Part shown: positions 19,801 to 53,316 of the stretch, piece after piece
How positions within the stretch are numbered: position 1 is the stretch's first letter
Layout of the letters: each line of letters begins with the position of its first letter
DNA from: Muricomes intestini
GTDB taxonomy: Bacteria; Bacillota; Clostridia; Lachnospirales; Lachnospiraceae
Direction: 5' to 3'
NCBI RefSeq assembly: GCF_004346165.1
Contig: NZ_SLZZ01000010.1
Coordinates: 62,001 to 126,000, forward strand
Length of the DNA: 64,000 nt
Made by a program: the position numbers and the translations under genes
The notes under the pieces: generated by a model
What the model was told of the DNA's origin: nothing
The model's input: only the letters and a program-made list of their open reading frames with translations
Database searches by the model: none

Positions 19801-19814
19801 TGTGTTTTGTGACC
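13829..19814 (+). CDS. Giant N6-methylase/SNF2-type helicase, first exon (interrupted by group II intron)
   Basis: The first 1995 residues of a protein of about 2395. N-terminal 250 residues: ArdC-like/ssDNA-binding region (FLASACRNYKLRYDEQLLVYA). About 275-390: low-complexity acidic linker. About 920-985: adenine-methylase-like motifs EPSCGIGNF and GNVPFGDF, the latter departing from NPPF/Y, so catalysis is uncertain. From about 1590: helicase core with LLAHAVGAGKTFEM, the DEAH-like VDESHYYKN and ATGTPISNSM. Related elements carry one such gene near the relaxase, thought to remodel or protect transferred DNA. AAGGAGG precedes the ATG. The unspliced frame continues only eight codons into the intron. 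Joining base 19814 to 22633 gives D-L-S-T-P, the expected motif, in frame. Confidence 0.9.
14658..15011 (+). CDS. tnpV: TnpV-family protein, nested in another frame of the helicase gene
   Basis: 117 residues that follow the TnpV family pattern: MNELTYTMVGDYSLPNLKL, then VTLGRYAQMRREFLKEH, LAEVEQRASKMEETILSQM, and KAEDMMKWVRLMNSLRSSA. The gene lies wholly inside the coding sequence of the large helicase, in a different frame. It has its own ribosome site (AAAGGAG, 10 bases before the ATG). In the helicase frame the same DNA encodes a Gly/Ser/Asp/Glu-rich linker with no evident fold, which suits overprinting. TnpV proteins occur with Tn4451-type elements; their function is not settled. Confidence 0.75.
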   Translation: MNELTYTMVGDYSLPNLKLPQQPEVTLGRYAQMRREFLKEHHRVLYYNLLTRGELTQHLAEVEQRASKMEETILSQMAQKEGVTEQMKAEDMMKWVRLMNSLRSSAQEIVKAEVIFA

Positions 19815-20608
19815 GTGTAGCGATACGTTGCTACAAATAAACTAAGAATGGGGCTATGCCCTGTGAGGAGGTAAAAGTAGCGGAGGAAACAGAGTTTTCT
19901 CTAACTGATATTCTGAAGAGTGGAATGAAGGGGTAACGCCTGGAAACGCTCACCTAATACTACGTTGGAGGCTAAGGAGTGTAATATCCTGAGCTGACAC
20001 AGCACGTTGAAGTCGGCTGAAAATCGCCCAAACAAGCTTATGCTGTTGTGGAAAGCTGTCCAGAGGTGGATGGTGCGGTCTATAGGTCGGGGGTCTATAA
20101 AGTTCTCATGGCAAGAATGTGGTTGACTACCACTGACAAAAACCCGAATGAAAATGTCAAGAAGAAAGAGCGGTAGAAATGCCGTTGCCACGAAAGTGGT
20201 GTGTGTGAGGTTGAGTAAGGCGGTCGCAATGAAAGACCTTGCGGTGTTACAGGCATCGGCAAGCACACTGGCAAAAAGGGTAGCACTAAAAGAACTATGC
20301 AGAGATAAGAATATCGGAACGTAGAAAGTCTCAGATGTGGAGCGATTGCACGTTATGAAGCATGAAAACGGAAAGCCATGTCGCCATTGAGGGGGTGTGG
20401 TATAACTTTTCTTAATCTGGGATGAAAGAGCAGCCATGGTACCGTGTCCGTTAGCGATAACAGGATTTAGAAGCCGTGAAAAAAGTAAGCGGTGGAGGGA
20501 CGGGCTGTAGTCAAGAATGTGATGAATAAAACGAAAGGAGCATTATTAACAGACATCATAGGTTCGAGTAGGACTAAGAAAGGCGAACCCGAAAGGAGTG
20601 AGCCGACT

Positions 20609-22522
20609 ATGACAACAGAGAAAAGGGCTTTGAAGAAAACAAAGCTAAGACATGCAGAATACTATGACTTTCAAGATATTCAAGATAGATTGTACAAGGA
20701 TAGTGGGGATGGAAAAGAATTTCGCAATCTTATTGAAGTGATTACCATGCCTGAAAATATCCGTATGGCATATAGAAATTTAAAGAAAAATCATGGAAGT
20801 CATACACCGGGAACAGATAAAAAGACAATCAATGATATAGAAAAGTTGGCTGATGAACAGTTGATAAGCAAGGTACAGGAAAAATTCAGATGGTACAGAC
20901 CGCAAAGTGTCCGCAGAGTGGAGATACCAAAAGGTAACGGAAAAGTTCGTCCACTAGGAATTCCTACAATAATGGATAGACTGGTGCAACAGTGTGTGCT
21001 ACAGGTATTAGAGCCTATCTGTGAAGCGAAGTTTCACGAACACAGTTATGGTTTCAGACCAAATAGAAGCACGGGAAATGCGATTGCACAGTCATATAAA
21101 AACATGCAGATGAGTCATTTGCATTATGTTGTGGACATTGACATTAAAGGATTCTTTGACAATGTGAATCATAGCAAGTTGTTAAAGCAGCTTTGGACAC
21201 TTGGTATCAGAGATAGGAAATTAATCTCAATTATATCAACAATGTTAAAAGCAGAGGTAGCAGGTATTGGGTTTCCAGAAAAAGGAACACCACAGGGTGG
21301 AATTATTTCACCATTGTTATCTAATGTGGTGCTAAACGAGCTTGACTGGTGGCTTGCAAGCCAATGGGAGGAATTTCCCACAAAGTATCCATTCAATGAC
21401 CGCCGAAATTCTAACGGTAGTCCATGCAGAGGAAATAAGTTTGTCTCATTGCGGAGAAGCGGTTTGAAAGAAATAACCTGTGTCAGATACGCTGATGACT
21501 TTAAAATTTTTACGAGTAATTATCAGAATGCTGTAAAATTGTTCTATGCAACGAAAGGGTGGCTCAAAGACCGCCTCGGGCTTGATATTAGTCCAGAAAA
21601 GTCGAAGATTGTTAATCTTAAAGAGAAATATTCAGAGTTCCTTGGATTTAAGATGAAAGTGATTCCCCGTGGTAAACGTATGAATAAAGACAACATGGGA
21701 GAACCACGATATGTAGTACAAAGTCATGTCAGAGAAAAATCAATAGAAAAGATAAGAGAGGAATTGAAAAAACTGATTTATGCAATCGAATATCCGCCAA
21801 ACAAGGCTAATTGTATTTATGCCGAAGTAAGCAAATATAATTCGTTTGTGTTGGGTGTCCATGGTTATTACAGCATGGCTACCCAAGTAAGTGCAGATTT
21901 CAGACCAATCGCCTTTTCAGTCCAAAAGAGCTTAAAAGCAAGGTTAAGACAGCGGATTAAAACCGCCAAAGAAGTCAGGAAAAACAAAATCCCGATTCAC
22001 ATCACAAATGTTATCCGTGATAAATATGGAAAAAGTGACCAAATGAGATATGTGAATGACCTCGCTCTCGCCCCGATAGGGTATGTGCGGCATTCCCATC
22101 CGATGCAAAAAGCGTATGGGGCGAACTCATACACAATAAAAGGTAGGGAATTAGTGCATAAAAAGCTGGAGGGCGTTGATATGGCAGTCCTGCATGATTT
22201 AATGAGAAATCCTATTGAGGGAGAATCAATTGAATTTAATGATAATAGGCTGTCATTATACTCAGCACAAAAAGGAAAGTGTGCAGTCACTGGAAAACAG
22301 ATAGATACGGACAATGTAGGATGTATCAGAAAGATTCCAAAAGAGCATGGAGGTACTGATAAATACAGTAATCTTCTGCTTGTTAGTGGAGAAATACAGA
22401 AATTGCTGTATATCAAAGATACAGATACTTTTAATGTGGAAGTGGAGAAGTTAAATCTTGACGCAAAACGGTCGGAAAAACTGCTAAAGCTTAGAAGCCT
22501 TGCTTTTGTTGAGAGTTGTTAA
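20609..22522 (+). CDS. ltrA: Group II intron reverse transcriptase/maturase with HNH endonuclease domain
   Basis: 637 residues from the ATG that follows GAAAGGAG; the frame stays open 39 codons further upstream. It helps the intron RNA fold and splice, and drives retrohoming by nicking the target and reverse transcribing. Reverse-transcriptase blocks are seen from about residue 60: VRPLGIPTIMDRLVQQ, YGFRPNRST, VVDIDIKGFFDNV, GTPQGGIISPLLSN and the catalytic RYADDFKIF. A maturase X region follows. The C-terminal HNH domain contains CAVTGKQ and HGGTDKYSNLLLV. All core residues look intact, so the intron may be active. It is encoded in intron domain IV, between the 5' structured part and domain V. 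Confidence 0.93.
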   Translation: MTTEKRALKKTKLRHAEYYDFQDIQDRLYKDSGDGKEFRNLIEVITMPENIRMAYRNLKKNHGSHTPGTDKKTINDIEKLADEQLISKVQEKFRWYRPQSVRRVEIPKGNGKVRPLGIPTIMDRLVQQCVLQVLEPICEAKFHEHSYGFRPNRSTGNAIAQSYKNMQMSHLHYVVDIDIKGFFDNVNHSKLLKQLWTLGIRDRKLISIISTMLKAEVAGIGFPEKGTPQGGIISPLLSNVVLNELDWWLASQWEEFPTKYPFNDRRNSNGSPCRGNKFVSLRRSGLKEITCVRYADDFKIFTSNYQNAVKLFYATKGWLKDRLGLDISPEKSKIVNLKEKYSEFLGFKMKVIPRGKRMNKDNMGEPRYVVQSHVREKSIEKIREELKKLIYAIEYPPNKANCIYAEVSKYNSFVLGVHGYYSMATQVSADFRPIAFSVQKSLKARLRQRIKTAKEVRKNKIPIHITNVIRDKYGKSDQMRYVNDLALAPIGYVRHSHPMQKAYGANSYTIKGRELVHKKLEGVDMAVLHDLMRNPIEGESIEFNDNRLSLYSAQKGKCAVTGKQIDTDNVGCIRKIPKEHGGTDKYSNLLLVSGEIQKLLYIKDTDTFNVEVEKLNLDAKRSEKLLKLRSLAFVESC

Positions 22523-22584: not shown

Positions 22585-22632
22585 GAGTGGGGGAAAAGGG
22601 GGAGATAATATCAAACTCTTACCTATCACTAT

Positions 22633-23834
22633 TTTCCACGCCGAAGAATGATGGCACATTTTCCGTCTATAACGACATCAGAAAGAAGCTGATTGAGAGA
22701 GGTATTCCTGAAAGTGAAGTGAAGTTCATACACGAAGCCGACACGGATATGAAGAAAAAAGAACTGTTCCAAAAGACCCGCAAGGGAGAAGTCAGAGTGC
22801 TTCTCGGCTCTACTCAGAAGATGGGAGCAGGAACGAATGTGCAAGACAAACTTATCGCACTTCACGACGTGGATTGTCCGTGGCGACCTTCAGATTTGGA
22901 GCAGCGTTCCGGTAGAATTGTCCGTCAGGGCAATGAAAATCCGCAGGTAGATATTTACCGTTATGTAACAGAGCAGACATTTGATGCATACCTCTATCAG
23001 CTTGTGGAAGGTAAGCAGAAGTTCGCAAGTCAGATTATGACGAGCAAATCTCCGGTCAGGTCGGCAGAGGATATTGATGAAACAGCACTGTCCTATGCGG
23101 AGATAAAAATGCTTGCAACAGGCAATCCGTATATCAAAGAAAAGATGGACTTAGACATTCAGGTGCAGAAGCTAAAGATGTTAAAATCCAATTTTTTATC
23201 GGAGAAATATGGACTAGAGGATAAGGTCATCAAGTTCTACCCACAACAGATTGCTTACTTAAAATCCCGTGTAGAGGGACTTACAAAAGATGTTGAAACA
23301 GCAAAATTACACCCGAAACCGATAGACGAGCAGCCGCTTGGAATGACGGTATCGGGTGTTTCTTATTCCGAAAAAGCCGAAGCAGGTCAGGCAATCATCA
23401 ATACCTGCAAGTCAATGAACAGTCCTGATGCGATACCACTTGGCGAGTACCGTGGCTTTCAAATGGAACTGTATTTTGATACGGTGCAGCGTAATTATGT
23501 TGTGAAATTGAAAGGCGAAACGAGCAGAGATGTACCGCTTGGCGATGATGCTCACGGTAATATCGTGAGAATAGATAACGGCATAGAACGCTTTGAGGAA
23601 GCACTTGCTGATACGAAAAACAGCCTTGAAAATACGGAGAAGCAGTTTGAAACAGCGAAGCAGGAAATCGAAAAGCCGTTTGCAAAGGAGGAAGAATTGA
23701 GGGCAAAAACTGCCCGACTTGATGAGCTGAATATCCTGCTCAATATGGATAAAAAGGAAAATGAGATTGTCGGCGGAGAGCCTGATGAGGGCGAAGCAGT
23801 CGGCGGCAGAAAGGAGAAATCGTATGAGAGATAA
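22633..23834 (+). CDS. Giant N6-methylase/SNF2-type helicase, second exon
   Basis: The last 400 residues of the interrupted helicase. After the joint it reads STPKNDGTFSVYNDI, then the helicase C-terminal motifs LLGSTQKMGAGTNVQ, WRPSDLEQRSGRIVRQGN and TFDAYLYQLVE. A coiled-coil tail follows (about the last 200 residues). Without splicing, a stray start inside the intron would give a fragment lacking Walker A, unlikely to be active alone. The stop lies 20 bases before the next gene. Confidence 0.9.
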
Positions 23835-39900: not shown

Positions 39901-40126
39901 TCCTTTTTACCCCTAAGTTTATTCTATGGAGATTGCTTAACGTGGCTCTTGGGTTGTACTTTGTCTTTCGCCATTAACAATCGTGAATTACTACTTTTAT
40001 AGTATAACATAAAAATAGTTGGAAATCATTACTGATAGTTGGTTTGACTTCCTTTTGGTGCGTGTGATTTGGAATCTACTTAACCTATACTATTAGTTAT
40101 GGAAACACACTAAGGGAGGTGATGTG
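39901..40126. promoter_or_regulatory. Divergent control region
   Basis: It separates the minus-strand gene from the XRE regulator. Two ATAGTTGG copies, about 20 bases apart, and a TATAGTATA palindrome are visible. A TTGACT at about 40043 and a TATACT near 40087 are the best -35/-10-like boxes, but their spacing is poor. No gene is seen. Confidence 0.4.
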
Positions 40127-40462
40127 ATGAAGCTCGATACAATCGGCAAGAATATAAGAAAGTTCCGACTTGCGAAGAAATTACGCCAAGAAGATTTGGC
40201 TGAGAAAACAGACTTGACAACAAATTATATTGGTATGGTTGAGCGTGGAGAGAAAATTCCGTCACTCGAAACTTTCATAAAGATACTAAATGCTTTAGAT
40301 GTATCATCGGATATGGTTCTTACAGATGTCTTGGAAACGGGATACACAGTCAAGAACTCTATGCTGAATGAGAAGCTTGAAAAACTTGCTCCTGAAGATA
40401 GAAACAGAATTTATGAAGTCATAGATACACTTGTGAAGCAGTCAAAGCAAATACTTCCATAA
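40127..40462 (+). CDS. XRE-family helix-turn-helix regulator
   Basis: 111 residues. An N-terminal HTH of the Cro/C1 type (about 3-60): IGKNIRKFRLAKKLRQEDLAEKTDL, then NYIGMVERGEKIPSLETFIKI. A short helical tail (LEKLAPEDRNRIYEVIDTLV) is probably used for dimerisation. The ATG after AAGGGAGG (7 bases) is preferred over the GTG just before it. Divergent from the minus-strand gene, so autoregulation of the shared region is likely. Confidence 0.9.
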   Translation: MKLDTIGKNIRKFRLAKKLRQEDLAEKTDLTTNYIGMVERGEKIPSLETFIKILNALDVSSDMVLTDVLETGYTVKNSMLNEKLEKLAPEDRNRIYEVIDTLVKQSKQILP

Positions 40463-40469
40463 AACACAG

Positions 40470-40502
40470 AAGTTCGTCCTAATCGACGAGCTTTCTTTTT
40501 TT
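40470..40502 (+). terminator. Terminator after the XRE gene
   Basis: AAGTTCGTC pairs with GACGAGCTT (one wobble), followed by TCTTTTTTT. Confidence 0.85.
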
Positions 40503-40520
40503 CAGTATAAAAAATTTCAG

Positions 40521-40550
40521 CTATCGACAAATTTTTCGGGACTTCGATAG
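40521..40550. promoter_or_regulatory. Inverted repeat CTATCGA/TCGATAG upstream of a small gene
   Basis: CTATCGA and TCGATAG are perfect arms separated by 16 bases, with AAATTTTTCG between. Very similar elements (AAATTTTTCG and CTATCG...CGATAG) occur at the lexA-like promoter at 61.8 kb, suggesting one shared regulator. Confidence 0.5.
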
Positions 40551-40617
40551 AGAGAATATGCTATAACAACAACTGTCAGTGATAGACACATACTAATAGA
40601 CATAGGAGGAAGTAGAA

Positions 40618-40833
40618 GTGAACGACATTTTCAGACAAATAGCGAAAGAAAATGGAACAACTGAAAAAGCAGTAAAAGAGGAAATGCAGTTTGCCATTCG
40701 GGAAGCAATGAAAAGTGCTGAACCGGAAGCAATAGCTTTTTGGAAAGCAGTTGCACCGGACGGAAAAGAGCCGCCGATAGAAAAGGTCATAGCAATGATT
40801 GCATTGAACGTTAATAATAAAATGTATAATTGA
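40618..40833 (+). CDS. Small conserved protein (often labelled Spo0A C-terminal-like)
   Basis: 71 residues: NDIFRQIAKENGTTEKAVKEEMQFAIREAM, then FWKAVAPDGKEPPIEKVI. The helical pattern resembles a short DNA-binding region; some annotations name such proteins after the Spo0A C-terminal domain, but the similarity is thin and no sporulation role is implied. GTG start after AGGAGG. It has its own operator-like repeat upstream and a terminator directly after, so it is a one-gene unit. Confidence 0.6.
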   Translation: MNDIFRQIAKENGTTEKAVKEEMQFAIREAMKSAEPEAIAFWKAVAPDGKEPPIEKVIAMIALNVNNKMYN

Positions 40834-40856
40834 GGTGCTTCGGCATCTCTTTTTTA
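40832..40856 (+). terminator. Terminator with TTCG tetraloop
   Basis: GAGGTGC pairs with GCATCTC over a TTCG loop, followed by six T. Confidence 0.88.
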
Positions 40857-40937
40857 TTATTCTTTAAAAGAGTTGCATTAGGTGTTTGTAAAAAGTGATA
40901 CCTTAATGCCTCAAAGGTTACATTTCTGTCCGAAATC

Positions 40938-40966
40938 TTGAAATGCCTGAAAATTTAATATATAAT
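40938..40966 (+). promoter_or_regulatory. Promoter of the small HTH gene
   Basis: TTGAAA and TATAAT are separated by 17 bases. Upstream, GCATTAGGT and ACCTTAATGC form an imperfect inverted repeat (about 40874-40908) that could be an operator. Confidence 0.7.
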
Positions 40967-41019
40967 GTTAAATGAGTAACTGTAACGAAGAAGAATTATA
41001 AGATGAAGAGGTGTTACTG

Positions 41020-41226
41020 ATGAAGATATGCTATAACAAACTTCAAAAACTTATGATTGACAATCAAATGAAAAGACAGGATTTAATGCGTGCAGCCGAA
41101 ATCACATCATACGCTGCAACGAAGATAAATAAGAATGAGCCAGTATCTCTTGAAGTACTGATGAGGATATGTCAGGTGTTTCACTGTGACATCGGAGATA
41201 TATGCGAAGTTATTTTAGACGAGTAA
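41020..41226 (+). CDS. Small Cro/C1-type HTH protein
   Basis: 68 residues, nearly all one HTH domain: CYNKLQKLMIDNQMKRQDLMRAAEI, SYAATKINKNEPVSLEVLMRICQVF, HCDIGDICEVI. It matches the small HTH_26-type regulators. I chose the ATG with GAGG about 9 bases upstream rather than the GTG three codons earlier. It stands 49 bases before hsdM and may act like a controller of the restriction locus (inference from position). Confidence 0.85.
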   Translation: MKICYNKLQKLMIDNQMKRQDLMRAAEITSYAATKINKNEPVSLEVLMRICQVFHCDIGDICEVILDE

Positions 41227-41275: not shown

Positions 41276-42781
41276 ATGGCATCGAGTAATAATGCAAATA
41301 TCGGATTTGAAAAACAGATTTGGGACGCAGCGTGTGTCCTTTGGGGACATATTCCCGCAGCAGAATACAGAAAGGTTATCGTAGGTCTTATTTTCCTGCG
41401 TTACATATCAAGTGCGTTTGAAAAGCGTTATCAAGAGCTTGTTGCAGAAGGCGACGGCTTTGAAGATGACAGAGACGCCTATGTTGAGGACAATATTTTC
41501 TTCGTACCGGAGGACGCTCGTTGGAGCAAAATTGCTTCATCTGCTCATACTCCTGAAATCGGTACGGTTATCGATGATGCTATGAGAGCCATTGAAAAAG
41601 AAAATACTACCCTTAAAAACGTATTGCCTAAGAATTACGCAAGTCCTGATTTGGACAAGCGTGTTTTGGGCGATGTTGTTGACCTGTTCACTAATATGGA
41701 TATGGGCGACACCGAGGAAAGCAAAGACCTGCTCGGCAGAACTTATGAGTATTGTATTCAGCAGTTTGCCGCTTACGAAGGTGTTAAGGGTGGTGAGTTC
41801 TACACGCCTGCAAGTATTGTTAAAACCATTGTTGCTATCTTAAAGCCATTCAAAAACTGCCGTGTATATGACCCTTGCTGCGGTTCGGGCGGTATGTTCG
41901 TACAGAGTGCAAAGTTCATTCAGGCTCACAGCGGTAAGCGTGGCGAAATCGCCGTTTACGGTCAAGAGTCCAATGCCGACACTTGGAAAATGGCAAAAAT
42001 GAATATGGCTATTCGTGGTATTGACGCCGATTTCGGCCCGTATCAGGCAGATACATTTTTCAATGATTTGCACAAGACTTTGAAAGCAGATTTTATTATG
42101 GCAAATCCGCCTTTCAACCTCTCTAACTGGGGACAGGAAAAGCTCAAAGACGATGTGCGTTGGAAGTACGGCACACCGCCTGCCGGCAATGCCAACTATG
42201 CGTGGATTCAGCATATGATACATCATCTTGCACCTAACGGAAAAATCGGTCTTGTTCTTGCAAACGGTGCTTTGTCCTCTCAGTCAAGCGGCGAGGGCGA
42301 CATCAGAAAGAACATAATTCAAGCCGACCTTGTAGAAGGAATTGTTGCTCTGCCTACGCAGCTCTTTTACAGCGTTACTATTCCTGTTACCCTTTGGTTC
42401 ATCACAAAGAATAAAAAGCAAAAAGGCAAAACCTTGTTTATCGACGCTCGCAAAATGGGTTATATGGTTGACCGTAAGCACAGAGATTTTACCGATGACG
42501 ATATTCAGAAGTTGGCAGATACATTTACCTCTTTCCAAGAAGGAACGATTGAAGATGTGAAAGGCTTCTGCGCTGTTGCTGATTTGCAGGAAATCGAAAA
42601 GCAGGACTTCATTTTGACTCCGGGCAGATATGTAGGTATCGAAGAAGTTGAGGATGATGGAGAACCGTTTGAAGAAAAGATGACCCGTCTTACTTCTGAA
42701 TTATCGGAGATGTTTGCAAAGTCTCACAAACTGGAGAACGAAATCCGTAAGAAACTGGGGGCGATTGGGTATGAAATGTAA
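41276..42781 (+). CDS. hsdM: Type I restriction-modification methyltransferase subunit
   Basis: 501 residues. Methylates adenine in the sequence chosen by HsdS. The N-terminal helical domain (GFEKQIWDAACVLWGHIP) is followed by the methylase core: VYDPCCGSGGMFV (SAM binding, about residue 203), VYGQESNADTWKMAKMN and the catalytic DFIMANPPFNLSNWG. The ATG chosen is 8 bases after AGGAGG; an ATG two codons earlier is too close. The end overlaps the hsdS start, so M and S are coupled. Confidence 0.95.
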   Translation: MASSNNANIGFEKQIWDAACVLWGHIPAAEYRKVIVGLIFLRYISSAFEKRYQELVAEGDGFEDDRDAYVEDNIFFVPEDARWSKIASSAHTPEIGTVIDDAMRAIEKENTTLKNVLPKNYASPDLDKRVLGDVVDLFTNMDMGDTEESKDLLGRTYEYCIQQFAAYEGVKGGEFYTPASIVKTIVAILKPFKNCRVYDPCCGSGGMFVQSAKFIQAHSGKRGEIAVYGQESNADTWKMAKMNMAIRGIDADFGPYQADTFFNDLHKTLKADFIMANPPFNLSNWGQEKLKDDVRWKYGTPPAGNANYAWIQHMIHHLAPNGKIGLVLANGALSSQSSGEGDIRKNIIQADLVEGIVALPTQLFYSVTIPVTLWFITKNKKQKGKTLFIDARKMGYMVDRKHRDFTDDDIQKLADTFTSFQEGTIEDVKGFCAVADLQEIEKQDFILTPGRYVGIEEVEDDGEPFEEKMTRLTSELSEMFAKSHKLENEIRKKLGAIGYEM

Positions 42782-43274
42782 GCTTTCTGATATTTGCAGT
42801 TTTCGCAAAGGAAAAGTAGAAGTAGAAAGCCTAAATGCGAAAAACTATATATCGACCGAAAATATGTTGCCAAATAAGTGTGGAATTACGGAGGCAAGCT
42901 CTTTACCGACTGTTTCTTTAACACAGGAATATAAAAACGGTGATGTCCTTGTTTCTAATATTCGCCCTTATTTCAAAAAAATTTGGCAAGCCCAATATGA
43001 TGGCGGTTGCTCAAACGATGTATTAGTCTTTGTTCCAAAACCTAATACAGATAAAGATTTCTTGTATTATGTACTTGCGGATGATGATTTCTTTACATAT
43101 TCTATGGCAACATCAAAGGGAACAAAAATGCCACGAGGAGACAAAACCTCAATAATGCAATACGAAGTTCCTCTGATTGATTTGCAGGTGCAAGAGAAAA
43201 TCGCAAGTGTTTTGAAGGCATTGGACAAGAAAATTGAACTTAATAATGAAATAAACAATAATTTAGCGGCTTAG
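42771..43274 (+). CDS. hsdS: HsdS specificity subunit, 5' half only (currently truncated by inversion)
   Basis: 167 residues, about 40% of a full HsdS. It has one target-recognition domain (KLSDICSFRKGKVEVESLNA to RGDKTSIMQYEVPLIDLQ) and the start of the central helix (QEKIASVLKALDKKIELNNEINNNL). It then ends with AA-stop, encoded by the recombination site. The matching second half lies downstream on the minus strand. Inversion between 43251 and 43944 would join them into a full subunit. In this state it may be inactive, or work as a half-subunit dimer. It overlaps hsdM by 11 bases. Confidence 0.9.
   Translation: MKCKLSDICSFRKGKVEVESLNAKNYISTENMLPNKCGITEASSLPTVSLTQEYKNGDVLVSNIRPYFKKIWQAQYDGGCSNDVLVFVPKPNTDKDFLYYVLADDDFFTYSMATSKGTKMPRGDKTSIMQYEVPLIDLQVQEKIASVLKALDKKIELNNEINNNLAA
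43251..43274 (+). repeat. hsdS inversion site 1 (plus orientation)
   Basis: 24 bases with the core TAAACAATAATTTAG that encodes the INNNL motif of HsdS. Identical over 24 bases, inverted, to site 4. Supplies the premature stop codon of the truncated hsdS. Confidence 0.85.
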
Positions 43275-43948
43275 AGTTCGGTGTCGGAGACATCCAATTC
43301 GCCGGACATAAGTTTAGGTAATAGCGTGTCTCTGATTTCAGCTAATCTCTTTATTTCTCTTGTTTTTGAAAGAATCATAGAGAAAATAGGCTGTACTAAT
43401 CCGTCAAATTTTTTCAAGACATCCTCGGTAGGCAAATATGTTGGATAGTTCTTTAGAATATCCGTTTTCAAATTTGTGAAAACACTACCATTACCAAGTG
43501 CAATTAGATTGTCTCGAATGTGTTTGAAATAAAGATACAGATATTCATTTGAAAACTTTGATGACGGAAAATAGAGCCAGCCGTCGTGTATGCAAGTATC
43601 TATATCAAGTATCTTAGGTAAACCGGGTGTGGCGCTATTTGATAAAACCAAACTGCCTGATTTAAGGTAAACAGTCTTTTTCAAACCAGCCTCAATGATG
43701 TATTCTTTAATTTCATTGATGAATGGAGAAGTAATACCAGTTGCATCAGATATTTTCAGCCAATGAAATCCACTATCTGACAAAAAGTTTTGGATAGGTC
43801 GAGGTGAACCACCACGTTTTATTTCAACAAAATCGCCAAGTACACCATTTATCCAAGTTTTAGGTACTTGCCTGTCAAATGGTTCAAAGTCTATAAACCA
43901 CGATTTAAAAAGAGCCATTGCTTGTTGCTCTAAATTATTGTTTAGCAT
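43271..43948 (-). pseudogene. hsdS: Silent hsdS 3' half (second recognition domain cassette)
   Basis: A headless HsdS C-terminal half on the minus strand: LNNNLEQQAMALFKSW, then a recognition domain (PKTWINGVLGDFVEIKRGG to NLKTDILKNYPTYLP) and the final conserved helix (KRLAEIRDTLLPKLMSGEL DVSD). There is no promoter-proximal N-terminal half, so it is probably not made as such. It is not decayed: the frame is fully open. It is a stored cassette that becomes expressed after inversion at the TAAACAATAATTTAG sites. Confidence 0.85.
43921..43944 (-). repeat. hsdS inversion site 2 (minus orientation)
   Basis: Contains the core TAAACAATAATTTAG on the minus strand, continuing as AGCAACAAG. Matches site 3 at 23 of 24 bases. 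Confidence 0.85.
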
Positions 43949-43974
43949 ATAACATACCCATAACTTCCGTGGGT

Positions 43975-44004
43975 GGCGGAAGTTAATATCGGGGGACTTC
44001 CGCC
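43975..44004. promoter_or_regulatory. Inverted repeat upstream of the hsdS recombinase
   Basis: GGCGGAAGT and ACTTCCGCC are perfect 9-base arms, 12 bases apart. They lie between the silent hsdS half and the recombinase start. No T-run follows, so an operator or RNA hairpin controlling the recombinase is more likely than a terminator. Confidence 0.5.
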
Positions 44005-44042
44005 CCATAGTCGTTCTCTAAGAATAAAAAGGAGAATTGACT

Positions 44043-45026
44043 ATGAAACAAGAGTTAATCAAAGATGTTATTCAGGGAATGTTACCCTACTTGAACAACG
44101 CACAAAACGAAAAATTGCAAGAGGTGTTGAAATATACCCTTGCAAAGTATGAGGTAACGGAAAATCAAAACAAAGAGGAATACTCGGAGCAGAACTATGT
44201 AGAACTGTTCCTATCGGCAAAGCGAATTGAGGGCTGCTCCGAGAAATCTCTTAAATACTACAAGGCAACTATCGAAGCTATGCTCTGTGAACTCAAAAAA
44301 GATGTCAAACACATAGTTACAGACGACATCAGAGGATACCTGACGGAATATCAGGAAAAGAAGAAATCAAGCAAGGTAACGATAGACAATATCCGCCGTA
44401 TTCTATCCAGCTTCTTCTCTTGGTTAGAGGACGAGGATTACATACTGAAAAGCCCAATAAGACGCATACACAGAGTAAAAACCGGCACGAATATCAAGGA
44501 GACATACTCCGATGAAGCGTTAGAGCTTATGAGGGATAACTGCTCAGAGCTTCGAGACTTAGCGATTATTGATATGCTTGCTTCAACGGGTATGCGTGTC
44601 GGCGAAATGGTACTGCTTAATCGAAATGATATTGATTTCAACGAGAGAGAATGTATCGTGTTCGGTAAAGGCAGTAAGGAGCGAGTAGTCTATTTTGACG
44701 CTCGCACAAAGATACATTTGCAGAACTATTTGGAGAGCAGGACGGACGACAATCCGGCGCTGTTTGTATCGCTGAAATCGCCACACGAAAGACTGAAAAT
44801 CGGCGGTGTTGAGGTTCGCCTTAGAGAATTTGGAAAGCAATTAGGAATTAACAAGGTACACCCGCATAAGTTCAGGCGTACACTTGCAACTATGGCAATA
44901 GATAAAGGAATGCCCATTGAACAGCTTCAACAACTCTTGGGGCATAGAAAGATAGATACAACCTTGCAGTATGCAATGGTAAAGCAGAGCAATGTTAAGA
45001 TTGCACATCGAAAATACATTGGATAG
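44043..45026 (+). CDS. Tyrosine recombinase (XerC/D-like) of the hsdS inversion system
   Basis: 327 residues. An N-terminal SAM-like core-binding domain (about 50-145) and a catalytic domain with the expected residues: Arg in STGMRVGEMVLL, HPHKFRRTLATMA (HxxR), LLGHRKIDTTLQYA (His and nucleophile Tyr). It lies inside the invertible region, between the silent hsdS half and the second hsdS gene. That is the usual place for the recombinase that shuffles hsdS in type I loci. It is unlikely to be the ICE integrase because it sits mid-element. AAGGAG is 8 bases before the ATG. Confidence 0.92.
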   Translation: MKQELIKDVIQGMLPYLNNAQNEKLQEVLKYTLAKYEVTENQNKEEYSEQNYVELFLSAKRIEGCSEKSLKYYKATIEAMLCELKKDVKHIVTDDIRGYLTEYQEKKKSSKVTIDNIRRILSSFFSWLEDEDYILKSPIRRIHRVKTGTNIKETYSDEALELMRDNCSELRDLAIIDMLASTGMRVGEMVLLNRNDIDFNERECIVFGKGSKERVVYFDARTKIHLQNYLESRTDDNPALFVSLKSPHERLKIGGVEVRLREFGKQLGINKVHPHKFRRTLATMAIDKGMPIEQLQQLLGHRKIDTTLQYAMVKQSNVKIAHRKYIG

Positions 45027-45040
45027 AGAGGATACAAACT

Positions 45041-46222
45041 ATGGAAAGAAAACTAATTCAACTTTCAGATGTTATTACGGACATAGCAGCGGGACCATTT
45101 GGTTCAAATTTGAAAGTTTCTTGTTTTGTAAATGATGGTTTTCCCATTATTGATGGTGCTAACTTGAAGAGTTTTAAGGTTACTGACAATATAACAAAAT
45201 TTGTTACGGAAGAAAAGGCACGTTCTTTGCATCGTTCTATCGCAAAGCGTGGGGACATTGTTGTTACAATAAGTGGTACACTCGGACAAATAGCATATAT
45301 TCCTGATGACTCCAACTATGAAGAATATTTATGCTCGCAAAGACAGTTTCGTGTGACTTTTGATACAACAAAAGTATATGTACCTTATTTGGTGTTTTAT
45401 TTTCATACATACGAGGGGAAACATAAGATATTGTCTTTTGCAAATCAGGTTGGTGTACCTGCGTTATCGCAACCGTTGAAAAATTTCCGACAAATTAGTG
45501 TCCAACTACCCACTTTAGAAACGCAAAAGAAAATTGCAAGCATTGTTGAGTCGATTAACGGAAAAATAGAACAAAATGAAATCATAAACAATAATTTAGA
45601 GCAGCAAGCTCAGGCAATCTATCAGCAAATGTTCATAGATAATGCTCGTTCTGATTGGGCAGAAGGCACTTTAAGTGATATTGCTGATATTACAATGGGT
45701 CAGTCGCCAAGTGGCAGTAGCTATAACGAGGACGGAACTGGCACAATTTTCTTTCAAGGTCGTGCGGAATTTGGATTTAGATTTCCGTCAGTTCGTCTAT
45801 ACACCACTGAACCTAAACGAATGGCACGGTCAAATGATACTTTGATGAGCGTTCGAGCACCGGTAGGCGACTTAAATGTCGCTCATATGGATTGCTGCAT
45901 TGGTCGTGGACTTGCTGCCATTCATTCTAAATCCCACCATCAATCCTTTGTTCTTTACACGATGTTTTCGCTTAAAAAACAGTTAGATGTTTTCAATGGC
46001 GAGGGAACGGTTTTTGGTTCTATCAATCGTAATTCGTTGAATGATATGCCAATTCTTATACCGTCTGATGATATTTTGGACGAATTTGAAAGGATTGTAG
46101 CACCGATGGATTTAACCATTCGCAATAATTACGATGAAAATTGCCGTTTGCAGGATATTCGTGATACCTTGCTTCCTCGTTTAATGTCCAGTGAACTTGA
46201 TGTCTCTGATATAGACATCTAA
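45041..46222 (+). CDS. hsdS: HsdS specificity subunit, full length
   Basis: 393 residues with two recognition domains. TRD1 spans about 5-165 (QLSDVITDIAAGPFGSNLKV to FRQISVQLPTLETQ). The central helix contains INNNLEQQAQAIYQQM, encoded by inversion site 3. TRD2 spans about 205-370 (GTLSDIADITMGQSPSGSSY to RNSLNDMPILIPSDD). The terminal helix reads LQDIRDTLLPRLMSSELDVSD. It sets which sequence the complex methylates and cuts. It starts 14 bases after the recombinase gene and ends inside inversion site 4. Either half can be exchanged by inversion. Confidence 0.93.
   Translation: MERKLIQLSDVITDIAAGPFGSNLKVSCFVNDGFPIIDGANLKSFKVTDNITKFVTEEKARSLHRSIAKRGDIVVTISGTLGQIAYIPDDSNYEEYLCSQRQFRVTFDTTKVYVPYLVFYFHTYEGKHKILSFANQVGVPALSQPLKNFRQISVQLPTLETQKKIASIVESINGKIEQNEIINNNLEQQAQAIYQQMFIDNARSDWAEGTLSDIADITMGQSPSGSSYNEDGTGTIFFQGRAEFGFRFPSVRLYTTEPKRMARSNDTLMSVRAPVGDLNVAHMDCCIGRGLAAIHSKSHHQSFVLYTMFSLKKQLDVFNGEGTVFGSINRNSLNDMPILIPSDDILDEFERIVAPMDLTIRNNYDENCRLQDIRDTLLPRLMSSELDVSDIDI
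45585..45608 (+). repeat. hsdS inversion site 3 (plus orientation)
   Basis: Core TAAACAATAATTTAG in the middle of the full-length hsdS, followed by AGCAGCAAG; 23 of 24 bases match site 2 in inverted orientation. Confidence 0.85.
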
Positions 46223-46242
46223 GCCGCTAAATTATTGTTTAT
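46219..46242 (-). repeat. hsdS inversion site 4 (minus orientation)
   Basis: Perfect 24-base inverted copy of site 1, overlapping the stop codon of the full-length hsdS. Inversion with site 3 would detach the second recognition domain and leave an INNNL-AA-stop end. Confidence 0.85.
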
Positions 46243-46261: not shown

Positions 46262-47053
46262 GTGAATAGGTTTGATAATGAAGATAAGATAATATCTCAA
46301 TTTCAGGAAGTCAACGACAATGAGGTTATGTTTGCAACTCAGTCTGAGACGATTGAAGCTGTTTATTTCTCAATTCATACAGAAACCTTATGGAAAAACT
46401 GGATAAATAGTTCCGGCAAGTCTGACCCGCCGCCTGATTACTATTCGCCAAAAGACGAGCTGATGATGGATGTTATGCGAGTTGACGACCACGCTTTTGT
46501 AGATGAAAAGGGAAAAATTCAAAATCCGACAAACGCCGGAGAAAGCAAGCTTTATAAAGAACTTAAAGAAAGCAGCATACAAGAAATCTACCCTAATGCA
46601 GAACTTATAGTTAATGCCAAAACACTTTTGCCGTCAGAGCAAGACCATAACTATTTGTTCTACAAGTCAAACTTTGAACGAATAGTTTCCGAACATATAA
46701 AAAAGCTTCCGCTTTACCAAAGCAACCACGACGGTTACAAAACCGTTTTGTTCGTTATGGATGAGTCCTCTGCGTATCTTCAATGTGAAAGCAATAAGCC
46801 GAATATGGATGAAGTACACGAAGGCGAAATGATAGCAGGAAAACCACACTTGTTCTTTTGGGATGAAAACTTCGTAAATGTCTTTTTACATAGCGGTATT
46901 GATTATTTGATTTGGTATGCACCATATAAACTGCTCAGAACTTCACAAGGGATTTTTGAACTTCCTAAGGTTGTGATGTTTGACTGTAAAACCGGAAACT
47001 ACGATAATTTAATCAAGTATAACGAAGAAAGAATATGCAGCTCCGAGCTGTAA
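46262..47053 (+). CDS. Unrecognised protein in the type I restriction operon
   Basis: 263 residues, acidic, no membrane segment; GTG start after GGAGGG. Visible blocks: SIHTETLWKNWINSSGKSDPPPDYYSPK, IVSEHIKKLPLYQSNHDGYKTVLFVMDESSAYLQ and VVMFDCKTGNYDNLIKY. The VLFVMDES and HLFFWDENF strands suggest an alpha/beta fold, but no nuclease or ATPase motif is clear. It lies between hsdS and hsdR with 10-40 base gaps, so it is expressed with the restriction subunits. It could modulate HsdR or be an added effector (inference). Confidence 0.7.
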   Translation: MNRFDNEDKIISQFQEVNDNEVMFATQSETIEAVYFSIHTETLWKNWINSSGKSDPPPDYYSPKDELMMDVMRVDDHAFVDEKGKIQNPTNAGESKLYKELKESSIQEIYPNAELIVNAKTLLPSEQDHNYLFYKSNFERIVSEHIKKLPLYQSNHDGYKTVLFVMDESSAYLQCESNKPNMDEVHEGEMIAGKPHLFFWDENFVNVFLHSGIDYLIWYAPYKLLRTSQGIFELPKVVMFDCKTGNYDNLIKYNEERICSSEL

Positions 47054-50144: not shown

Positions 50145-50161
50145 GTTGATGGAGAATGAAT

Positions 50162-52291
50162 ATGGACAAGAGATTTCAATGGACAGAATTTTATATGGAG
50201 TTGGCTTCTGCCCTACTTTCTTACAAAAACAATAGAAGTGACTTGATTGCTAAACTCAAAACTATCTTTGCCGATGCCGGAATGAATTTTCCGTTTAAGG
50301 AAAGAGGAAAAGAAGTATATGAGGACATCTGCCCGTTTACCGTTTTCGGCTCGTTTAATAAGGGCATAACAAATGCAAATCGTATTGCTTTGTTGGAACA
50401 ATTCGCAAAGCAATTTTCGATTAAGGCTGCTGTGCCGACAGAGTTTGACGGTATTCCGGTAGTAATGAATTTAAGTGCGTGGTTCTTTGCGTATAAAGAA
50501 AATCGTGGAGAACACGACATAGATAACCTTTGGGATTTGCTTGAAAAAGCAATAGCATATTCCGATGAAGCCTCCACAGATAATAAAAATGCTTTCATTG
50601 CTGCCTATGACACAGTTACAAAGCAGAAAATGATTAAGTGGAATATTACGATGGGACTTTATTGGGCAAGACCATATACATTCATCAATTTGGACTCTAC
50701 CAACGGAGCCTTTATTACGGATGTGGACAATATGCCCCATTATTTCACGACCATATTCTCTGATATAAATAAAGGATTACCCGACGGAAGAAACTATTTG
50801 TTTATGTGCGAGCAGGCAAAGAACGCTCTTAATCAGAAAGAATATGAGTATCACAGTTTCCCTGAACTGTCTTATTATGCTTGGAAAAGCAACAAATCGG
50901 GCAAAACAGAAGAAACCACAACAACCACAGTTGATTCAAATATAAAAGAAACGAATTATTGGATTTACTCTCCCGGTGACAACGCTTCAATGTGGGACGA
51001 GTTCTATAAATCCGGCATAATGGGTATCGGTTGGGACGATGTTACAGACCTTAAAGGATTTTCTTCAAAAGAGGAAATCAAAGAGTATATGAAAAAGGTT
51101 TACGACCCAAGTTACTCCTACAAAAACAACGCTCATTGCCTTTGGCAGTTTGCAAATGAAATTAAAGTCGGCGATGTGATTTTCGTCAAAAAAGGAATGC
51201 ATAAAATCATCGGAAAAGGCATTGTAACTTCCGATTATATCTATGATACCTCAAGAAGCACATACAAGCACATTAGAAAAGTTGACTGGCAAAACAAGGG
51301 CGAATGGGAACATCCCGGTCAGGCAGTTATGAAAACGCTCACCAACATATCGGCTTATCCCGATTATGTTCAAAAGCTGCTTGCTCTGTTTGCGGAAGAT
51401 ACTTCTGAGGAAGTATCGGAACAAAAGGAAATCAAGTATCCGTTGTATTCAAAAGATGATTTCCTGAATGAAGTCTATATGGATGAGGATACATATAACA
51501 CGCTTACGGAATTGCTTGAAGCAAAATACAATGTTATTCTGCAAGGCGCACCCGGCGTAGGTAAGACTTTTGCAGCAAAGAGGCTTGCTTACTCTATTAT
51601 GGGACAGAAAGACACCAGCCGTGTAGCAATGGTACAGTTTCATCAAAGCTACTCTTACGAAGATTTCATTCAAGGATACAGACCGTCAAAAGACGGCTTT
51701 GAACTTGAAAACGGGACATTCTATAAGTTTTGCAAAGAAGCGGAAGAAGATAATGAACGCCCCTATTTCTTTATTATTGATGAAATCAACCGTGGTAATT
51801 TGAGCAAAATTCTCGGTGAACTTATGATGTTAATCGAGAAAGATAAACGTGGCGAAAAAATCAAACTGCTTTATTCTAATGAATGGTTTACTGTACCTCA
51901 GAATGTCAGAATTATAGGTATGATGAACACCGCTGACAGAAGCCTTGCATTAATGGATTATGCGTTGAGAAGAAGATTTGCTTTCTTTGATTTCGCACCA
52001 GCGTTTCCTTCGGAAGGCTTCAAGAACTATTTGGCGGAAAAGAATTCTCCAAAATTAGAAAGCCTAATAACTGCTGTCGAGTCATTGAATAACACTATTT
52101 CTGCTGATGAGTCATTGGGAGATGGTTTCAGAATCGGTCACAGCTATTTCTGTACCGATGGAGAAATTACTGATGAATGGCTCAAATCCGTTGTGGAATA
52201 TGAAGTAATACCGCTTATCAAAGAATATTGGTTTGACGAGCCGACAAAAGTTAGAGATTGGTCTGCTACTTTAAGGAGTGCAATTAAATGA
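50162..52291 (+). CDS. mcrB: McrB-type AAA+ restriction GTPase with EVE-like domain
   Basis: 709 residues. The motor subunit of a modification-dependent McrBC restriction enzyme. The N-terminal part (about 1-255) is an unassigned domain. Residues of about 265-400 look like an EVE/PUA-type modified-base reader (NYWIYSPGDNASMWDEFY, GIGWDDVTDL, KVGDVIFVKKGMHKIIGKG). The AAA+ module has LQGAPGVGKTFAAKRLA, FIIDEINRGNLSKILGELMML and GMMNTADRSLALMDYALRRRF, the McrB signature. It follows hsdR by 17 bases and overlaps mcrC by 4, so both systems may be one transcript. Confidence 0.92.
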   Translation: MDKRFQWTEFYMELASALLSYKNNRSDLIAKLKTIFADAGMNFPFKERGKEVYEDICPFTVFGSFNKGITNANRIALLEQFAKQFSIKAAVPTEFDGIPVVMNLSAWFFAYKENRGEHDIDNLWDLLEKAIAYSDEASTDNKNAFIAAYDTVTKQKMIKWNITMGLYWARPYTFINLDSTNGAFITDVDNMPHYFTTIFSDINKGLPDGRNYLFMCEQAKNALNQKEYEYHSFPELSYYAWKSNKSGKTEETTTTTVDSNIKETNYWIYSPGDNASMWDEFYKSGIMGIGWDDVTDLKGFSSKEEIKEYMKKVYDPSYSYKNNAHCLWQFANEIKVGDVIFVKKGMHKIIGKGIVTSDYIYDTSRSTYKHIRKVDWQNKGEWEHPGQAVMKTLTNISAYPDYVQKLLALFAEDTSEEVSEQKEIKYPLYSKDDFLNEVYMDEDTYNTLTELLEAKYNVILQGAPGVGKTFAAKRLAYSIMGQKDTSRVAMVQFHQSYSYEDFIQGYRPSKDGFELENGTFYKFCKEAEEDNERPYFFIIDEINRGNLSKILGELMMLIEKDKRGEKIKLLYSNEWFTVPQNVRIIGMMNTADRSLALMDYALRRRFAFFDFAPAFPSEGFKNYLAEKNSPKLESLITAVESLNNTISADESLGDGFRIGHSYFCTDGEITDEWLKSVVEYEVIPLIKEYWFDEPTKVRDWSATLRSAIK

Positions 52292-53316
52292 TTCGCATAC
52301 AGAACATATACTATATGCTTTCCTATGCGTTTCAGGTTCTCAACGAAGATGGCTATAAGCAGGTTGCTACCGAAGAATTTGAAAATGCAGCCGAACTATG
52401 TGCTGCCATATTGATAAAAGGTGTTTCTTCTCAGCTAAAACGAGGATTGGGCAAAGAGTATATTGTTCAAACGGAGGAATTATCTTCATTAAGGGGTAAA
52501 ATTGATATTTCTGCTTCGGTAAAAGAGCAAACTATGCTGAGAAAACGCCTTGTCTGCAACTATGATGAGTTTTCGGTCAATTCATATATGAATAGAATTA
52601 TCCGAACAACAATGGACACGCTCGTAAGAAGCAATATCAGCAAGGATAGAAAAAAGCAACTTCGTAAACTCCTCATTTATTTTGCAGAAGTCGAACCTTT
52701 GAATCGTGAGAGCATAAATTGGAAGCTTCAATTTAATAAGAATAATCAAACCTATCAGATGTTGATTTCGATTTGTTATCTGATACTCAAAGGCTTGCTT
52801 CAAACAACTTCTGACGGAAGCACAAAGTTAATGGACTTCCTTGATGAGCAGCGTATGTGCAGGCTTTATGAGAAGTTCATTCTTGAATACTACCGTAAGG
52901 AACACCCTGAAATTCGGGCGTCAGCGTCTCAAATTCCTTGGGATACTGACGATGATTACAGAGAAATGCTCCCTGTTATGCAAAGCGATATTATGCTTAA
53001 AAGCGGAGATAAAACTTTGGTAATTGATGCAAAATACTATGCTCATACCACGCAAAGTCAGTACAATACAAATACGCTACATTCTGGAAATTTGTATCAG
53101 ATATTTACTTATGTGAAAAATCTTGATACAAGCAACTCCGGTAATGTTGCTGGAATGTTATTATATGCCAAAACGGATGAGATTGTGTTGCCAAATAATG
53201 ATTATAAAATGGGTGGAAATCAAATATCAGTAAAAACACTGGATTTGGACTGTGAATTTGCAGAAATAAAGAGGCAGTTAGATGATATAGTACAAAGATA
53301 TTTTGACTGTTCCTAA
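52288..53316 (+). CDS. mcrC: McrC-type nuclease subunit
   Basis: 342 residues. Partner of McrB that cleaves DNA. The N-terminal region (IRIQNIYYMLSYAFQVL, VQTEELSSLRGKIDIS) is typical of McrC/LlaJI-type proteins. The PD-(D/E)XK nuclease core is seen as PVMQSDIMLKSGDKTLVIDAKYY, with a following NLYQIFTYVKN helix. The start shares four bases with the mcrB stop (ATGA). Together with the EVE domain in McrB, the target is probably DNA with modified cytosine, though this cannot be read from sequence. Confidence 0.93.
   Translation: MIRIQNIYYMLSYAFQVLNEDGYKQVATEEFENAAELCAAILIKGVSSQLKRGLGKEYIVQTEELSSLRGKIDISASVKEQTMLRKRLVCNYDEFSVNSYMNRIIRTTMDTLVRSNISKDRKKQLRKLLIYFAEVEPLNRESINWKLQFNKNNQTYQMLISICYLILKGLLQTTSDGSTKLMDFLDEQRMCRLYEKFILEYYRKEHPEIRASASQIPWDTDDDYREMLPVMQSDIMLKSGDKTLVIDAKYYAHTTQSQYNTNTLHSGNLYQIFTYVKNLDTSNSGNVAGMLLYAKTDEIVLPNNDYKMGGNQISVKTLDLDCEFAEIKRQLDDIVQRYFDCS

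What the first reader, a model, noticed from the sequence alone, without database searches (positions are those of the whole stretch)
42771..46242. Four-site hsdS inversion array with its own tyrosine recombinase
Sites at 43251 (+), 43921 (-), 45585 (+) and 46219 (-) share TAAACAATAATTTAG, which encodes the INNNL joint of HsdS. Inner sites (2, 3) continue as AGCARCAAG and outer sites (1, 4) as CGGCTTAG, adding a stop codon. Two first halves and two second halves can be joined in up to four ways, and outer sites can park a gene as a half-subunit. In this sequence the hsdM-linked hsdS is off and the distal one is complete. Carriage on an ICE means phase-variable methylation moves with the element.
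Basis: partly seen in the sequence, partly recalled or inferred. Interest (0 to 1): 0.65.

Follow-up and report, generated by a model that had tools for sequence, protein, structure and literature searches.

The report
Shuffling type I restriction specificity locus
A gut bacterium's mobile element carries a DNA-modification system whose target-recognition gene is cut and rejoined by its own recombinase into four versions; about 80 relatives show that the two gene positions are almost always switched as a linked pair, so that exactly one complete version exists at a time.

Summary
Four exact copies of TAAACAATAATTTAG (43252+, 43930-, 45585+, 46227-) are the only ones in the 3.7-Mb genome. They bound two second-half hsdS cassettes, and all four possible HsdS joins are open (372-405 aa). 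The hsdM-linked hsdS is off and the distal one is complete.

One reading needs correcting. The stop and read-through arms are the two ends of each cassette, not fixed outer and inner site types; many relatives show the opposite arrangement.

The array is a new member of a published kind, SsuCC20p of Streptococcus suis, carried here by a likely ICE.

New here:
(1) In 75 of 78 non-redundant typable loci exactly one hsdS is complete (Fisher 2e-18). Identical Lactococcus plasmids differ by a cassette swap-plus-flip with the recombinase unmoved. This fits recombination in pairs of events, although selection is not excluded.
(2) The recombinase mRNA leader is a covariation-supported H-type pseudoknot followed by a hairpin that hides the ribosome-binding site. 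It matches no Rfam family and is restricted to this recombinase clade.
(3) Recombinase-less two-site loci look like excision scars.

Switching in this strain was not shown, because no reads were available. The ICE's integrase and ends were not found.

The parts
41276..42781 (+). hsdM (type I methyltransferase subunit)
   Evidence: Pfam N6_Mtase E 8.6e-110, HsdM_N
42771..43274 (+). hsdS-A: first-half TRD1-A, parked; stops after INNNLAA (167 aa)
   Evidence: Methylase_S E 2.5e-13
43252..43266 (+). recombination site 1 (downstream arm = stop end of cassette a)
43267..43929 (-). cassette a: second-half TRD2-a, now facing away from hsdM
   Evidence: Methylase_S E 4.5e-10; open when joined to either first half
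43930..43944 (-). recombination site 2 (downstream arm = read end of cassette a)
43962..44005 (+). H-type pseudoknot of the recombinase leader: S1 43962-43968 with 43978-43984; S2 43971-43977 with 43999-44005
   Evidence: covariation score 0.464 vs 0.246 shuffled, 0/500; slid <=0.158; CM hit 48.9 bits
44006..44045 (+). hairpin P3 sequestering the Shine-Dalgarno sequence and start codon of the recombinase
   Evidence: fold z -5.1; SD paired (3-4 of its 4 nt) in 82/83 relatives and compensated outer arm
44043..45026 (+). tyrosine recombinase (XerA-like), R/K/HxxR/H/Y residues present
   Evidence: Phage_integrase E 6.3e-32; NCBIfam recomb_XerA_Arch above cutoff
45041..46222 (+). hsdS-B, complete: TRD1-B joined to cassette c (393 aa)
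   Evidence: Methylase_S E 3.2e-18
45585..45599 (+). recombination site 3 (downstream arm = read end of cassette c)
45600..46226 (+). cassette c: second-half TRD2-c, facing hsdM
46227..46241 (-). recombination site 4 (downstream arm = stop end of cassette c)
46262..47053 (+). 263-aa accessory ORF of unknown function, not part of the core system
   Evidence: no Pfam, NCBIfam or PADLOC match; homologues only in L126, L073, L030
47064..50144 (+). hsdR (type I restriction subunit)
   Evidence: Pfam HSDR_N, SWI2_SNF2, T1RH-like_C

Best explanation
[quoted passage not shown] Two hsdS start halves are fixed: TRD1-A behind hsdM and TRD1-B behind the recombinase gene. Two interchangeable second-half cassettes, a and c, are each bounded by two inverted copies of one 15-nt site. 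A cassette's read end makes a full HsdS (one of four specificities); its stop end (CGGCTTAG) parks the start half as a 167- or 188-aa fragment. The XerA-like recombinase exchanges strands within the core, whose 4-nt spacer must match. Events usually come in pairs over the four sites (1x3 with 2x4, 1x4 with 2x3, or 1x2 with 3x4), so the cassettes stay antiparallel, the recombinase segment keeps its direction, and exactly one hsdS is complete. The recombinase is probably kept scarce by its leader, a pseudoknot followed by a hairpin over the Shine-Dalgarno sequence. Shown: anatomy, open reading of all four joins, exclusivity, leader covariation. Inferred: recombinase activity here, the paired mode (about 0.5), the leader acting in RNA (about 0.75), effects on methylation.
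For: Four exact sites, unique in the genome. All four joins are open. Spacer identical within 80/81 loci. Exactly one hsdS complete in 75/78 non-redundant loci (38 ON/OFF, 37 OFF/ON, 2 OFF/OFF, 1 ON/ON; Fisher 2.2e-18). Eight independent pairs on the recombinase tree that differ in hsdS-A almost all differ the opposite way in hsdS-B (mean 7.7 of 8). Recombinase segment inverted in only 4 of 82 loci, all four still antiparallel. Simulation: any paired event keeps one complete hsdS, whereas a single 1x2 or 3x4 inversion gives none or two. Lactococcus plasmids with identical hsdM and recombinase proteins: pJM2A and pUC073A carry A+x, while pUCCL627F carries A+y by an exact swap-plus-flip with the recombinase unmoved. 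Cassettes >=80% identical occur in every position and strand. Recombinase-less two-site loci fit excision. Published SsuCC20p: recombinase-dependent switching, never two complete hsdS nor only truncated ones (PMC10790761). Leader.
Against: No reads of this strain, so it may be locked. Three of 78 loci (L005, L170, L027) and a Ligilactobacillus plasmid (BNS11) break the one-complete rule, so single inversions can happen or persist. L170 has five sites and runs of N, so its typing is uncertain. Assemblies show only the majority state, and selection for one complete hsdS would give the same table for loci with a normal recombinase segment. Only four loci test the antiparallel rule where selection cannot act (chance 1 in 16). 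pJM1A carries one cassette twice, which ordinary homologous recombination between plasmid copies can explain. The leader's RNA action is untested. The leader is absent from the branch with the exact S. suis core.
Confidence: 0.85

Rival explanations
1. Ordinary independent single inversions happen at all site pairs, and selection (or growth cost) keeps cells with exactly one complete hsdS and a correctly oriented operon.
For: Explains 75/78 exclusive loci without a special recombination mode. Exceptions exist (L005, L027, L170, BNS11).
Against: ON/ON has no obvious cost. In four loci with an inverted recombinase segment exclusivity is automatic, yet the unused cassette is still antiparallel (1 in 16 by chance). 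Published S. suis overnight-culture long reads showed no molecules with two complete hsdS, with only truncated hsdS, or with inverted xerD (PMC10790761), a time scale short for selection.
Confidence: 0.4
2. The array is a fossil in this genome: relatives switch, but this copy is fixed by low recombinase expression or loss of a host factor.
For: One assembled state only; the recombinase start is buried in a strong hairpin.
Against: Recombinase, all four sites and all four joins are intact.
Confidence: 0.1
3. RecA-dependent homologous recombination or horizontal exchange of hsdS pieces, not site-specific recombination, produced the different arrangements.
For: Cassettes move between species. pJM1A carries one cassette twice, as expected from recombination between plasmid copies.
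Against: Shared sequence at the joints is 15 nt (25 nt between sites 2 and 3; about 59 nt at 83% between sites 1 and 4), and the spacer matches within loci. In SsuCC20p switching needs the locus recombinase (PMC10790761).
Confidence: 0.05

Closest known systems
SsuCC20p of Streptococcus suis (PMC5198162, PMC10790761)
   Same: hsdM, two start-half TRDs, two second-half TRDs each between identical short inverted repeats, a tyrosine recombinase gene between the two hsdS units, hsdR; always one complete hsdS; both hsdS positions can be used; four alleles; mobile carriage.
   Different: Core TAAATCATCATTTA there, TAAACAATAATTTAG here. The recombinase in contigs bearing that exact core is about 63% identical and lacks the pseudoknot leader. 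Here on an ICE-like element in a Lachnospirales-type genome rather than a prophage region; that paper found SsuCC20p only in streptococci.
SpnIII / cod (ivr) locus of Streptococcus pneumoniae with CreX/PsrA
   Same: hsdS inversions by a locus tyrosine recombinase through short inverted repeats.
   Different: SpnIII has several repeat classes (15, 85, 333 bp; as cited in PMC10790761) and one expressed hsdS next to hsdM. Here one repeat class and two usable start positions.
SpnIV / tvr locus (PMC6265443)
   Same: hsdS shuffling by a tyrosine recombinase; excision and reintegration needs two recombinations; recombinase expression limited by an RNA structure (a transcription attenuator there).
   Different: tvr uses direct repeats (TER, MPR) and TvrA/TvrT; here inverted single-class sites, and a pseudoknot plus Shine-Dalgarno hairpin with no T-tract terminator predicted at the leader.
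Inverting hsdS systems of the REBASE survey (PMC7394358)
   Same: Duplicated hsdS with inverted repeats; 3.9% of type I systems.
   Different: The survey recorded only 100% matches longer than repeats known to drive homologous recombination, so 15-nt arrays like this one were probably missed (inference).

Membership tests
SsuCC20p-type phase-variable type I RM | hsdM, hsdR and four TRDs, two of which form one hsdS | tested here: met
SsuCC20p-type phase-variable type I RM | tyrosine recombinase gene between the two hsdS units | tested here: met
   catalytic residues
SsuCC20p-type phase-variable type I RM | both second-half TRDs flanked by identical short inverted repeats | tested here: met
   four identical 15-nt sites
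SsuCC20p-type phase-variable type I RM | exactly one complete hsdS per locus | tested here: met
   window and 75/78 relatives
SsuCC20p-type phase-variable type I RM | same core sequence | tested here: not met
   TAAATCATCATTTA vs TAAACAATAATTTA; core varies between loci, so not treated as defining
SsuCC20p-type phase-variable type I RM | two accessory hypothetical proteins | tested here: inconclusive
   one 263-aa ORF found; S. suis sequence not available to compare
SsuCC20p-type phase-variable type I RM | recombinase-dependent switching and allele-specific methylation | not testable with these tools
   needs mutants and long reads
SpnIII (ivr/cod) | several distinct inverted-repeat classes and a single expressed hsdS | tested here: not met
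   one 15-nt class; complete distal hsdS
SpnIV (tvr) | direct-repeat TER/MPR and TvrA/TvrT genes | tested here: not met
   sites alternate + - + -; the ORF list shows no candidate genes between hsdM and the recombinase
Integrative and conjugative element | relaxase, T4SS coupling protein, TraG/VirB4-like ATPase | tested here: met
Integrative and conjugative element | integrase and attachment ends around the cargo | tested here: inconclusive
   none identified; contig ends 1.1 kb past the window
Known RNA families (Rfam 15) | match to any covariance model | tested here: not met
   no match up to E 5 in 43850-44150

The most novel reading that the evidence does not exclude
The four sites recombine only as a coupled set (two synapses at once), which hard-wires exactly one complete hsdS. 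The recombinase that does this is metered by a previously undescribed mRNA element, an H-type pseudoknot feeding a Shine-Dalgarno-sequestering hairpin, that could sense a ligand, the recombinase itself or translation of the neighbouring hsdS.
Probability: 0.35. Interest if true: 0.75.

Novelty: new member of a known kind. Interest (0 to 1): 0.5.

Why it matters
How SsuCC20p-type loci keep exactly one complete hsdS was stated as unknown by its discoverers. Here some 80 loci from many Bacillota show the rule is general, with a simple testable cause (paired recombination) and a clear rival (selection). Identical plasmids caught in different states make it testable in laboratory Lactococcus. A covariation-supported leader RNA gives a handle on what sets the switching rate. 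Because these loci ride on conjugative elements and plasmids, phase-variable methylation and restriction can spread between species.

Tried and rejected
Megablast of the array and of the whole RM block against plasmids: no match. Protein search found plasmid relatives at 59-68% identity instead. First cassette comparison used a wrong frame for one orientation and was redone. Long-term comparison of cassette positions could not tell swap from in-place inversion, since all four combinations occur. RNAalifold on the full leader alignment returned a weak wobble pairing of the pseudoknot loop with the P3 strand; its alternative-fold switch is not supported by double changes and is not claimed. Exact S-type site in viral contigs: none. 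The S. suis core pattern gave 65 viral contigs, mostly chance; of the three followed up, two (L220, L240) carry a type I hsdM and one does not. Literature search for a pseudoknot leader on such recombinases found nothing, within an open-access library only.

Full report
Observation. The 15-nt core TAAACAATAATTTAG is present exactly four times in the 3.7-Mb genome, alternating + - + - inside a type I RM operon. Order on the + strand: hsdM; TRD1-A; site 1; cassette a (reversed); site 2; recombinase; TRD1-B; site 3; cassette c (forward); site 4; a 263-aa ORF; hsdR. The core encodes INNNL at the HsdS joint. Joining either start half to either cassette gives an open HsdS of 384, 372, 405 or 393 aa; the parked halves are 167 and 188 aa and end INNNLAA. 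The recombinase keeps the R, K, HxxR, H, Y residues and is XerA-like.

Each cassette has a read end (AGCARCAAG here) and a stop end (CGGCTTAG here). Which end faces a start half decides ON or OFF. In the window both read ends point inward, so inner and outer sites look like two classes, but relatives show the mirror state in about half the cases.

Relatives. A genome-contig scan with the recombinase returned 80 loci. Further genome searches, plasmids and viral contigs added more. After removing copies with identical recombinase DNA, 78 typable loci with a normally oriented recombinase gave 38 ON/OFF, 37 OFF/ON, 2 OFF/OFF and 1 ON/ON (Fisher 2.2e-18). One OFF/OFF locus, L170, has extra sites and runs of N. 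On a recombinase tree the state changes some 21-24 times by parsimony, and eight independent pairs differing in hsdS-A differ the opposite way in hsdS-B in 7.7 of 8 on average. The recombinase segment is inverted in 4 of 82 loci, and there too the cassettes are antiparallel. Among 81 loci with three or more sites, 80 carry one spacer at all their sites, although nine spacers occur overall. This is what a tyrosine recombinase that needs matching overlap sequence would select (established knowledge of the family).

How switching probably works. A small simulation shows that a single inversion of one cassette yields zero or two complete hsdS genes. Every pairing of the four sites into two recombinations (1x3 with 2x4; 1x4 with 2x3; 1x2 with 3x4) keeps exactly one and leaves the recombinase in place. 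The first pairing is excision by direct repeats followed by reintegration. Published SsuCC20p data fit: alleles A, E, H and rarely D, and long reads without molecules bearing two complete hsdS, only truncated hsdS, or inverted xerD (PMC10790761). [quoted passage not shown] Two of their isolates lack xerD, TRD2 and TRD3, which is the segment that a 1x3 excision would remove (my inference). Recombinase-less two-site loci found here (L174, L177, L184; Lactococcus plasmid pLLUC310B) look like such scars.

Strain-level evidence. Four Lactococcus plasmids share identical hsdM and recombinase proteins. pJM2A and pUC073A are identical over the array and carry TRD1-A joined to cassette x. pUCCL627F carries TRD1-A joined to cassette y, with both cassettes exchanged and inverted and the recombinase segment unmoved and 100% identical, exactly the 1x4 plus 2x3 product. 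pJM1A has x in both places and uses TRD1-B, which homologous recombination between plasmid copies in two phases would give. Four Ligilactobacillus salivarius plasmids carry related arrays; BNS11 is OFF/OFF, a clear exception. An Enterococcus faecium plasmid typed as conjugative, pW142, shows the window's OFF/ON arrangement.

The recombinase leader. Between site 2 and the recombinase start lies a strongly folding stretch (z -5.1) that recurs in most relatives, also where hundreds of bases separate it from site 2. On 73 distinct sequences an H-type pseudoknot is supported: helix S1 (7 pairs, all with changes on both sides), helix S2 between the S1 loop and a downstream strand (97% paired, four pairs with two-sided changes), covariation score 0.464 against 0.246 shuffled (0 of 500) and at most 0.158 for slid versions. 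Relatedness of the sequences is not fully controlled by the shuffles, but the slid versions keep it. A third hairpin covers the Shine-Dalgarno sequence in 82 of 83 relatives, with compensated outer arms (55 perfect against 21.7 shuffled). No Rfam family matches. A model of it finds only recombinases of this clade among 75 held sources and only this copy in the genome. The branch with the exact S. suis core lacks the pseudoknot. The likely role is to keep recombinase translation low, as the tvr attenuator keeps TvrR transcription low in SpnIV (PMC6265443); this is inference.

Mobile setting. Relaxase, T4SS coupling protein, TraG/VirB4-like ATPase, sortase and NlpC/P60-type genes lie directly upstream and McrB/McrC-like genes directly downstream. 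In Lacrimispora amygdalina the same block (HsdM 98%, HsdR 92%, McrB 92%) follows less similar sortase (72%) and NlpC genes (50%), so the RM-McrBC block moves. Nearly identical upstream regulator genes (96-100%) precede different type I families with their own four-site arrays in L150 and L181 (HsdM about 41%), suggesting one cargo slot. No integrase or end was found in the window or the last 1.1 kb of the contig.

Verdict. A real, probably active array; a new member of the SsuCC20p kind. What is new is the general one-complete rule with a testable cause, and the candidate leader RNA.

Noticed in passing
43945-44045: Recombinase leader: covariation-supported H-type pseudoknot plus Shine-Dalgarno-covering hairpin, no Rfam match; candidate new regulatory RNA.
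   Followed up: yes
L174, L177, L184, L265: Two-site hsdM-hsdS(-hsdR) loci without recombinase, consistent with excision scars of four-site arrays.
   Followed up: partly
L025, L105, L170: Expanded arrays with five or six sites; L025 has two near-identical tandem site blocks, suggesting growth of the array by duplication.
   Followed up: no
L005, L170, L258, L027: Exceptions to the rule: OFF/OFF (L005, L170 with extra sites and Ns, and Ligilactobacillus plasmid L258) and ON/ON (L027).
   Followed up: partly
40124-41226; L150, L181, L014: Nearly identical upstream genes (86-100%) precede type I systems of different HsdM families (41% and 28% to the window), each with its own four-site array: one slot, exchangeable systems.
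   Followed up: partly
20492-22522: Group II intron-like reverse transcriptase ORF interrupting the ICE's large helicase/methylase-like gene (13829-19840 and 22587-23834).
   Followed up: no
46262-47053: 263-aa ORF between hsdS-B and hsdR with no family match; homologues in L126, L073 and L030.
   Followed up: no
50156-53316: McrB/McrC-like pair directly after hsdR, moving with the RM locus in Lacrimispora (L001).
   Followed up: partly
L173, L175, L176, L179, L186, L187: Contigs of several genomes break at or just beyond a site, as expected if populations are mixed or the repeats are unresolved.
   Followed up: no
L263 (pJM1A): Same second-half cassette present twice in opposite orientations, probably by recombination between plasmid copies in different phases.
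   Followed up: partly
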